From positions 1 through 25,912 of IMG/VR virus record IMGVR_UViG_3300010149_004650: a stretch of DNA of 25,912 nt; one strand, written 5' to 3'. This stretch comes from a virus. The position numbers and the translations under genes are program-made. Below, piece by piece: positions 8,251 to 9,686 of this stretch; position 1 is the first letter of the stretch; each line of letters begins with the position of its first letter. Under the pieces are notes generated by a model that did no database searches, was not told where the DNA came from, and saw only the letters and a list, made by a program, of their open reading frames with translations.

Positions 8251-9596
8251 TGTACGCAACAGAGATTAGTCGAGGAAGGAAACTGCTAATACCTAAAAGC
8301 AACATACAGGCAGAACAGTTTATTCAGAAGGAAGCAGCGTTCTTTATGTCCTGTGTTAATGCTTATATAAGGGAGCTACTAGAGTGGATAAACATATCTG
8401 ACTTTGAAGTTACTGGCATAACTGATCATGGAGAAGTGTACCTAAGAGAAGAAGATAACGGTTTCTTTGTTGGGCCAAACGGAGGGTTCTTCGCACCAAT
8501 AACAAAGAGAAAGAATGGAGAGCCGTTTGCGAAACCAAAGTGGAGTGATACACAGCTAAAGGCGATGTTTTGTAATGTATTTAATGAGACGCATACTCAT
8601 GATTCTTGCGCGTCTTGGAAATTAAATATTATTGCTAACGGTGCTAATAAGATAAAGTCCTCTATAAAGCGATTCAAAAAGAGGGGCGACTCATATGCTG
8701 ATTATATCAAAGACATGAAACCGCCTGTTATAACCAACCCTACTATCTGCCACAAAAAGGCTTTAGCAAAGATTAAAGATGATGCCTTAGTAATAAGAGG
8801 GGCTAACAAACAGGAGGTCAAGATAAAAGACTTTTTTATACCCTACAAAAAGTATACAAAAGTTCATAAGAAGACATTTGGAGGAAACTTAGTTTTATCG
8901 AAAAAGAAAAATAGTAAGCATAACGAATACACTATAATGATCAAGTGCAAAAAGCATTTCTATTCTCCTTTAGGATGGATAGGTATGGACATAAACAAAT
9001 ACAACCCTGAGTGGCTTGCCATAGCGGAAGATGCCAAAGATGGTTTCTACAACATACTTCCTAAGCCTGATAATATTGATAAGATAGAAAAGATTAGAGA
9101 TGACATAGACAAGATGATCGACAACAAGGAAAGATCATCAGGATCGACTAAGAGAAGAGCAAGATTAAGAAAAGCAAAAGATAGGGCTGTATCAGCGTAT
9201 AGAAGAGAAATCAAAAAGTTTTTACTCCCGATGTTAGACTTCGTACAGTTATGTCGATTTGGACTTTGCTTAGACGGTGTTGCTACAAAAGGAAGAAGCT
9301 TTGGTCAGCAAGAAATAAATTCTATACTTGAGAAAGAATGTATAAAGAGAAACATTCCCTTTGCTATGACAAATCCTAGAATGACTACTAGGTCTTGTTA
9401 TTATTGCGAAGAGAATAATCCTAGGCCTAAAACCTCTGGGCCAGATGCGGGAGTCTACATTTGTGGAAACCCTCTTTGTCCTAAGTTTGAGTCTAGGGAA
9501 ATTCCCCATGTAAATGCCGCTAGAAACATAGCAAGGCAGGGTAAGAAACGCTTTCTAGAGTCGGCGGTAGAAGAGGGTATAGCTAGCCCTGCTTAA
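8247..9596 (+). CDS. TnpB/Cas12-like RNA-guided nuclease homologue with altered RuvC residues
   Basis: This encodes 449 residues. The C-terminal half follows the TnpB order: RuvC-I GWIGMDINKYNP (Asp248), a basic bridge-like helix (STKRRARLRKAKDRAVSAYRR, about 300-320), RuvC-II GLCLDGVATKG (Asp343 where family members carry Glu), PRMTTRSCYYC (Cys384, Cys387), YICGNPLC (Cys406, Cys411) as the second half of the zinc knuckle, and RuvC-III PHVNAARNIAR (His421 where the family has Asp). The N-terminal half is divergent. Two of three acidic residues therefore differ, so cleavage may be lost or changed while RNA-guided binding could remain, as in TnpB-derived repressors (TldR). Its stop lies inside a structured RNA-like unit, as tnpB stops lie within omega-RNA loci. 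No TnpA is present. Confidence 0.85.
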   Translation: MMYATEISRGRKLLIPKSNIQAEQFIQKEAAFFMSCVNAYIRELLEWINISDFEVTGITDHGEVYLREEDNGFFVGPNGGFFAPITKRKNGEPFAKPKWSDTQLKAMFCNVFNETHTHDSCASWKLNIIANGANKIKSSIKRFKKRGDSYADYIKDMKPPVITNPTICHKKALAKIKDDALVIRGANKQEVKIKDFFIPYKKYTKVHKKTFGGNLVLSKKKNSKHNEYTIMIKCKKHFYSPLGWIGMDINKYNPEWLAIAEDAKDGFYNILPKPDNIDKIEKIRDDIDKMIDNKERSSGSTKRRARLRKAKDRAVSAYRREIKKFLLPMLDFVQLCRFGLCLDGVATKGRSFGQQEINSILEKECIKRNIPFAMTNPRMTTRSCYYCEENNPRPKTSGPDAGVYICGNPLCPKFESREIPHVNAARNIARQGKKRFLESAVEEGIASPA

Positions 9597-9625
9597 GGCT
9601 CTACGATAACATAAATAGCTACTAG
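9551..9625 (+). ncRNA. omega-RNA-like unit overlapping the tnpB-like stop (copy B1)
   Basis: The head CTTTCTAGAGTCGGC (9551-9565) lies inside the last codons of the TnpB-like gene. GTCG (9560-9563) can pair with CGAT (9604-9607) using one G-U pair. Between them AAG+AGGG (9571-9577) pairs with CCCT (9587-9590), a bulged G9591, and CTT (9592-9594). This is the same bulged hairpin as in copy A but with different bases, which is compensatory change. AAGGCTCTACGATAAC (9595-9610) matches copy A at 13 of 16 positions. Overlap of the RNA with the 3' end of the nuclease gene is the arrangement known for TnpB omega-RNAs. Confidence 0.45.
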
Positions 9626-9686
9626 CCTTTCTACTGTCGGGCATATAGTTAAGTGGGCGACCAGCTTAAACTGAGGCAGTACGTAA
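9626..9686 (+). ncRNA. second, shortened omega-RNA-like unit (copy B2)
   Basis: The head CTTTCTACTGTCGGG (9627-9641) repeats the heads of copies B1 and A (12 of 15 against A). GTCG (9636-9639) pairs with CGAC (9658-9661). The internal hairpin of the other copies is missing. The tail CTTAAACTGAGGCAGTAC (9665-9682) contains, in order, every block of copy A's tail (CTTAA, TGAGG, TAC). AGTTAAG (9646-9652) could also pair with CTTAA-A-CT (9665-9672), giving a pseudoknot of the kind seen in omega-RNAs. If this is the functional 3' end, the guide would begin near 9683. Confidence 0.45.

What the first reader, a model, noticed from the sequence alone, without database searches (positions are those of the whole stretch)
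9551..9686. Tandem pair of structured RNA-like units over and behind the tnpB-like stop codon
Seen: two heads CTTTCTA(G/C)(A/T)GTCGG start at 9551 and 9627. Each is closed by GTCG pairing to CGAY, and the second ends in CTTAA-A-CTGAGG-C-AGTAC with a possible pseudoknot (AGTTAAG 9646-9652 with 9665-9672). Known: omega-RNAs overlap the 3' end of tnpB and end in a pseudoknot before the guide. Inference: this is the guide-RNA locus of the TnpB-like protein, duplicated, with B2 (and a guide near 9683-9702) as the likely functional end.
Basis: partly seen in the sequence, partly recalled or inferred. Interest (0 to 1): 0.8.

Follow-up and report, generated by a model that had tools for sequence, protein, structure and literature searches.

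The report
Phage TnpB-linked double-pseudoknot RNA units
A group of marine phages carries a relative of the CRISPR-ancestor protein TnpB together with copies of a tightly folded small RNA, sometimes back to back, and the folding is proven by matching mutations but does not look like an ordinary guide RNA.

Summary
The two units at 9551 and 9627 (B1, B2) are real, and a third copy (A) lies at 2291-2361. Each is a ~72-nt double pseudoknot: hairpin H1, whose loop pairs with b', then hairpin H2, whose loop pairs with d'. Covariation is decisive. In 15 units from seven phages, b/b' is 100% and d/d' 95.6% paired, with both-side changes in 11 of 13 pairs, against 30-44% when slid. The same four helices hold in 42 units beside a distant TnpB-like clade. 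The units accompany a TnpB/Cas12f-like protein (profile E 6e-14; VIA Z about 17). Fifteen sampled relatives without that gene (496 kb) have no unit. Its RuvC site is altered (E to D; D to H) yet the gene is under purifying selection (dN/dS 0.07-0.14). Best reading: tandem and dispersed small-RNA partners of a probably non-cleaving TnpB-derived protein. Function is untested.

The parts
8247..9596 (+). TnpB/Cas12f-like protein, 449 aa; RuvC motif I D kept (GMDIN), motif II E->D (LDG), motif III D->H (PHVNAARN), four zinc-finger cysteines kept
   Evidence: dN/dS 0.135 against the closest relative
8248..9717 (+). inserted cassette (tnpB-like gene + B1 + B2) between the exonuclease-like gene 7213-8250 and the gene at 9718; most relatives have the two native genes overlapping (GAAGTATGATAAAG) with nothing between
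9549..9621 (+). unit B1: H1 9549-9551/9564-9566; b 9556-9562 with b' 9597-9603; H2 9571-9578/9586-9594; H2 loop d 9580-9585 with d' 9616-9621; overlaps the tnpB-like stop codon
   Evidence: no synonymous change in the last 25 codons of the gene between window and G004
9625..9700 (+). unit B2: H1 9625-9627/9640-9642; b 9632-9638 with b' 9675-9681; H2 9647-9653/9665-9672; H2 loop d 9657-9663 with d' 9694-9700; TTTT follows at 9701-9704
2291..2361 (+). unit A (lone copy): H1 2291-2293/2306-2308; b 2298-2304 with b' 2337-2343; H2 2311-2319/2326-2335; H2 loop d 2320-2325 with d' 2356-2361; sits over the end of ORF 1934-2332 and directly before ORF 2367
9718..10263 (+). native gene after B2, used as anchor for the empty site
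2367..2783 (+). native gene after unit A; in other phages a second TnpB-like clade with its own units is inserted directly before it

Best explanation
The units are copies of a phage non-coding RNA that is the partner of the TnpB-like protein encoded with them. Shown: each unit is a double pseudoknot (H1 loop with b', H2 loop with d'); units occur in tandem and as lone copies; they track the presence of a TnpB-like gene; gene and units are present or absent together as a cassette at a gene junction; the protein has the TnpB/Cas12f fold with a D-D-H RuvC site and is under purifying selection. Inferred: the protein binds the units much as TnpB/Cas12 binds guide-RNA handles (hairpin loop paired to the 3' strand), the transcript is cut into units, and the complex binds rather than cuts DNA, or is held in an RNA-controlled state. 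Whether any unit carries a guide is open; most have no free 3' sequence for one.
For: Covariation of b/b', d/d' and H1 in 15 clade-1 units and of all four helices in 42 clade-2 units. TnpB/Cas12f homology by profile and fold. Co-occurrence on whole contigs: clade-1 phages have exactly A, B1, B2 (G024 one unit); 15 sampled relatives without the gene, 496 kb in all, have none. The empty site shows gene and units inserted together. A second clade, 23% identical, has its own units on both sides of the gene. Further TnpB-like phages have tandem or single units (L118, L111, L114, L123). In G031 three tandem units lie on the strand opposite to the flanking genes and end in a T-run, so they look like an RNA gene of their own. 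Purifying selection.
Against: No transcript, binding or processing data. G031 carries four units without a detectable TnpB-like gene (21-kb fragment), and G030 and G033 (7.5 and 5.5 kb) carry one each (the same G033 record also). Lone units sit directly before genes with a shared leader, as cis elements would. TnpB partners known so far carry a guide.
Confidence: 0.62

Rival explanations
1. Classical omega-RNA or TldR-type guide RNA: the unit is the scaffold and the sequence 3' of d' (B2 from 9701, A from 2362) is the guide, with a target in the host or in tnpB-less relatives.
For: Position over the tnpB-like 3' end; hairpin-loop pseudoknot whose 3' strand would lie next to the guide, as in ISDra2 (-5..-3 with -105..-103, PMC10097598). 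For the last clade-2 unit the 3' flank runs into the start of the native gene it is inserted before. TldRs are phage-encoded inactivated TnpBs (PMC13418256).
Against: Inner units are back to back; T-runs after d' in the units before tnpB-like genes and in lone units; no second match of the A or B2 flank in the phage genomes at up to 2 mismatches; the B2 flank is inserted sequence, so it does not match the empty site.
Confidence: 0.2
2. Cis-acting leader element: each terminal unit is an attenuator or terminator controlling the next gene, with the TnpB-like protein or a small ligand as the switch.
For: Units precede different genes in different phages; lone units share a T-run and leader with a ribosome-binding site; in unit A d' overlaps the likely Shine-Dalgarno of ORF 2367.
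Against: In these one-directional genomes any sense RNA gene lies before some gene. G031 units point away from the flanking genes, L118 units follow a tmRNA gene. B1 and inner units control nothing directly. Units are absent from relatives that keep the same genes.
Confidence: 0.13
3. RNA inhibitor array, working like a type III antitoxin: tandem pseudoknots, a terminator, then the protein they hold in check.
For: Pre-tnpB arrays of 1-5 pseudoknot units ending in a T-run directly before the gene resemble the ToxIN layout described in PMC5086642.
Against: The protein is TnpB/Cas12f-like, not ToxN-like; clade 1 has the units only after the gene; lone units elsewhere; the terminator scan found no standard stem at these T-runs in L118.
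Confidence: 0.04
4. Decoy RNA that mimics Cas12/TnpB guide handles to tie up host effectors (RNA anti-CRISPR-like).
For: Many copies and no guide would suit a decoy (inference).
Against: No host effector known; the units track the phage's own TnpB-like protein.
Confidence: 0.01

Closest known systems
TnpB-omegaRNA of IS200/IS605 (ISDra2, PMC10097598)
   Same: Protein fold; RNA beside and over the tnpB 3' end; hairpin loop pairs with a 3' strand
   Different: No tnpA in the cassette, E->D and D->H in RuvC, ~72-nt unit with two interleaved pseudoknots, tandem and lone copies, no demonstrable guide
TldR, nuclease-dead TnpB repressors of phages (PMC13418256)
   Same: Phage-encoded TnpB relative with altered RuvC; gene kept by selection
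   Different: TldR has a guide RNA with a host target; here arrays, and no target found
Cas12m (type V-M, PMC10442227)
   Same: Noncanonical RuvC site with E->D; binds DNA without cutting
   Different: Cas12m2 is HDD with a CRISPR array; here D-D-H and no spacers
TIGR-Tas (PMC12045711)
   Same: Tandem RNA array next to a phage-encoded RNA-binding protein, on either side of the gene
   Different: Tas proteins have a Nop domain and arrays with variable spacers; neither is seen here
Type III toxin-antitoxin (ToxIN, PMC5086642)
   Same: Tandem pseudoknots and a T-run before a protein gene
   Different: Different protein family, RNA unit and copy layout

Membership tests
TnpB/Cas12f superfamily | Sequence or fold homology incl. 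RuvC and zinc ribbon | tested here: met
   Profile hit to Cas12f E 6.4e-14, 28 TnpB/Cas12-type PDB sequences; AF2 model pLDDT 85 of the clade-2 member, VIA Z 16.9 to Cas12f and 16.6 to ISDra2 TnpB. The window member itself: Pfam Cas12f1-like_TNB E 7.6e-4, below its cut-off
Catalytically canonical TnpB | D-E-D RuvC triad | tested here: not met
   E->D in all 14 aligned members, D->H in the window clade and clade 2
IS200/IS605 or IS607 element | tnpA or serine recombinase in the element | tested here: not met
   Cassette 8248-9717 holds only the tnpB-like ORF and 121 nt of RNA region
omega-RNA / guide RNA | Conserved structured scaffold over the tnpB 3' end | tested here: met
omega-RNA / guide RNA | Free, variable guide 3' of the scaffold with a matching target | tested here: inconclusive
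   No free 3' sequence in inner units, T-runs in terminal ones, no second match in the phage genomes at up to 2 mismatches; host unknown
TldR | Altered RuvC with retained protein | tested here: met
   dN/dS 0.07-0.135
TldR | RNA-guided repression of a target promoter | not testable with these tools
   needs binding and expression data
Type III toxin-antitoxin | ToxN/CptN/TenpN-type endoribonuclease | tested here: not met
   protein is TnpB/Cas12f-like
TIGR-Tas | Nop-domain Tas protein | tested here: inconclusive
   No Nop match in Pfam scans, but a weak domain could be missed
Known Rfam family | Match to a covariance model | tested here: not met
   No match at gathering level or E<=5 for the window units or the L118 array

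The most novel reading that the evidence does not exclude
A TnpB-derived protein that works with arrays of guide-less double-pseudoknot RNAs: the RNA no longer programmes a target but assembles, inhibits or switches the protein, and lone copies spread through the phage genome form a regulon.
Probability: 0.3. Interest if true: 0.88.

Novelty: new variant of a known kind. Interest (0 to 1): 0.74.

Why it matters
TnpB is the ancestor of CRISPR-Cas12, and how its RNA partners change when phages adopt it is an open question. This family offers an RNA with a structure proven by covariation, many natural variants, a protein with a site-altered nuclease, and clean presence/absence between sister phages. 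It makes directly testable whether a TnpB relative can keep an RNA partner while losing both cutting and the guide.

Tried and rejected
Chance repeats: rejected by covariation. GTCG-CGAY closing helix: rejected. A CTTT/AAGG helix that I first drew: superseded by b/b' and H1. Rfam and plain folding energy: uninformative. AF2 of the window protein with four sequences: pLDDT 42, discarded. Bacterial and archaeal genomes with the clade-2 profile: no relatives. Isolate phages: no match for the window protein; for the clade-2 protein only weak TnpB hits, and four such loci showed no such units near tnpB. My geometric descriptor gives a chance hit every few kb, so it was used only with context. Homing by the B2 flank: rejected, since that flank is inserted sequence. 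VIA did not list every Cas12 family; absence there means nothing.

Full report
What is there. The window is a fragment of a phage genome from an IMG/VR virus record; near-identical contigs reach 125 kb. A 449-aa TnpB-like ORF (8247-9596) is followed by two head-to-tail units, B1 over its stop codon and B2 behind it. A third unit, A, lies at 2291-2361. A scan of viral contigs with the unit's own pattern found the same units in further phages whose TnpB-like protein is only 45-47% identical while B2 is nearly unchanged.

Structure. In alignment A9 (15 units, aligned by sequence alone) three helices hold. H1 is 100% paired, b/b' 100% and d/d' 95.6%; 11 of the 13 b and d pairs change on both sides somewhere, and slid controls fall to 30-44%. 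H2 is present in every unit but in slightly different register, so it was read unit by unit for clade 1. b lies in the H1 loop and pairs beyond H2; d lies in the H2 loop and pairs beyond b'; the two helices cross, hence two interleaved pseudoknots.

Surroundings. In most relatives the exonuclease-like gene ends on the start codon of gene 9718 with nothing between; the tnpB-like gene and the units are present or absent together. One relative, L069, has the gene with a single unit. Units A, B1 and B2 are the only three in clade-1 contigs of up to 125 kb. Fifteen relatives that lack the gene, together 496 kb, lack every unit by either model. Many contigs are fragments and related, so this is strong but not independent counting.

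A second clade. Where the window has unit A, other phages have a different TnpB-like gene (23% identical) with two or three units before and two after it. Forty-two of these units give the same four helices: H1, H2 and d/d' with the two alignable b pairs at 95.2% overall against 74.4% shuffled, and b/b' with 28 distinct sequence pairs 99.5% paired against 56% shuffled. Lone units occur before four other phage genes. More distant TnpB-like phages carry five units before and two after the gene (L118, directly behind a tmRNA gene), one behind tRNA genes (L111, L114), or two after the gene (L123); for these the assignment rests on inspection of descriptor hits, not on an alignment test.

The protein. 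A profile of 14 members hits Cas12f and TnpB structures (E 6e-14); the AF2 model of the clade-2 member (pLDDT 85) matches Cas12f and ISDra2 TnpB with Z about 17. RuvC motif II has D for E throughout; motif III has H for D in both unit-rich clades, D in some others. In Cas12m2, E->D together with D->H in motif I goes with loss of cutting but not of binding (PMC10442227); here the H is in motif III, so loss of cutting is inference. dN/dS of 0.07-0.135 for the window clade (two comparisons) shows a maintained protein; the last 25 codons, which overlap B1, carry no synonymous change between window and G004, against 0.25 per site elsewhere (small sample).

How it most likely works. The H2-loop/d' pseudoknot resembles the handle that TnpB and Cas12 proteins hold. 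I infer that the TnpB-like protein binds the units. A guide is doubtful: inner units are followed at once by the next unit, units before the tnpB-like gene and lone units end in T-runs (flanks listed by hand from the sequences), and the flanks of A and B2 match only themselves at up to 2 mismatches (the two 3-mismatch B2-flank hits are at chance level, as the reversed control also gives hits). The G031 array, on the strand opposite to its neighbours, suggests that the units can be an independent RNA gene. Against this, lone units share a leader and sit before genes, so cis control is not excluded, and G031, G030 and G033 show units without a detected TnpB-like gene on fragments.

Known and new. 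No Rfam family matches, and literature searches in the open-access library brought up nothing that describes such arrays; subscription papers were not searchable. The system is a variant of TnpB plus non-coding RNA, differing by arrays, double pseudoknot, altered nuclease site and absent transposase.

Noticed in passing
window 10260-12119 and 13224-14858: A DNA polymerase III alpha-like (PHP) gene appears split in two by an exonuclease-like ORF (12138-12809) and a nucleotidyltransferase-like ORF (12806-13231); relatives have varied inserts at the first junction.
   Followed up: partly
L150 1250-1440 and 2690-2970 (Klebsiella phage KP13-16, OP617741): CRISPR-like repeats GTGTTCCCCACATGCGTGGGGATAAACCG directly before, and GTGTATCCCGCG-type repeats after, a TnpB/Cas12-like ORF annotated as hypothetical.
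   Followed up: no
L148 1129-1299 (Alicyclobacillus phage MMB025, PV686781): An annotated CRISPR repeat region lies directly before the phage's TnpB-like 'transposase'.
   Followed up: no
L118 2162-2980: A tmRNA gene is directly followed by five tandem units and then a TnpB-like gene.
   Followed up: partly
L145 about 1710-1930 (G031): Three tandem units on the strand opposite to the flanking genes, ending in a T-run, on a fragment without a detected TnpB-like gene.
   Followed up: partly
L146 about 1010-1180 (G022): Two tandem units, the second ending in a T-run, between a single-strand DNA-binding protein gene and a glycosyltransferase-like gene, far from the TnpB-like locus of the same phage.
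   Followed up: no
window 2367-2783 and 22485-23267: Two small endonuclease-like ORFs of similar look (Vsr/DUF559-like by eye, not tested).
   Followed up: no
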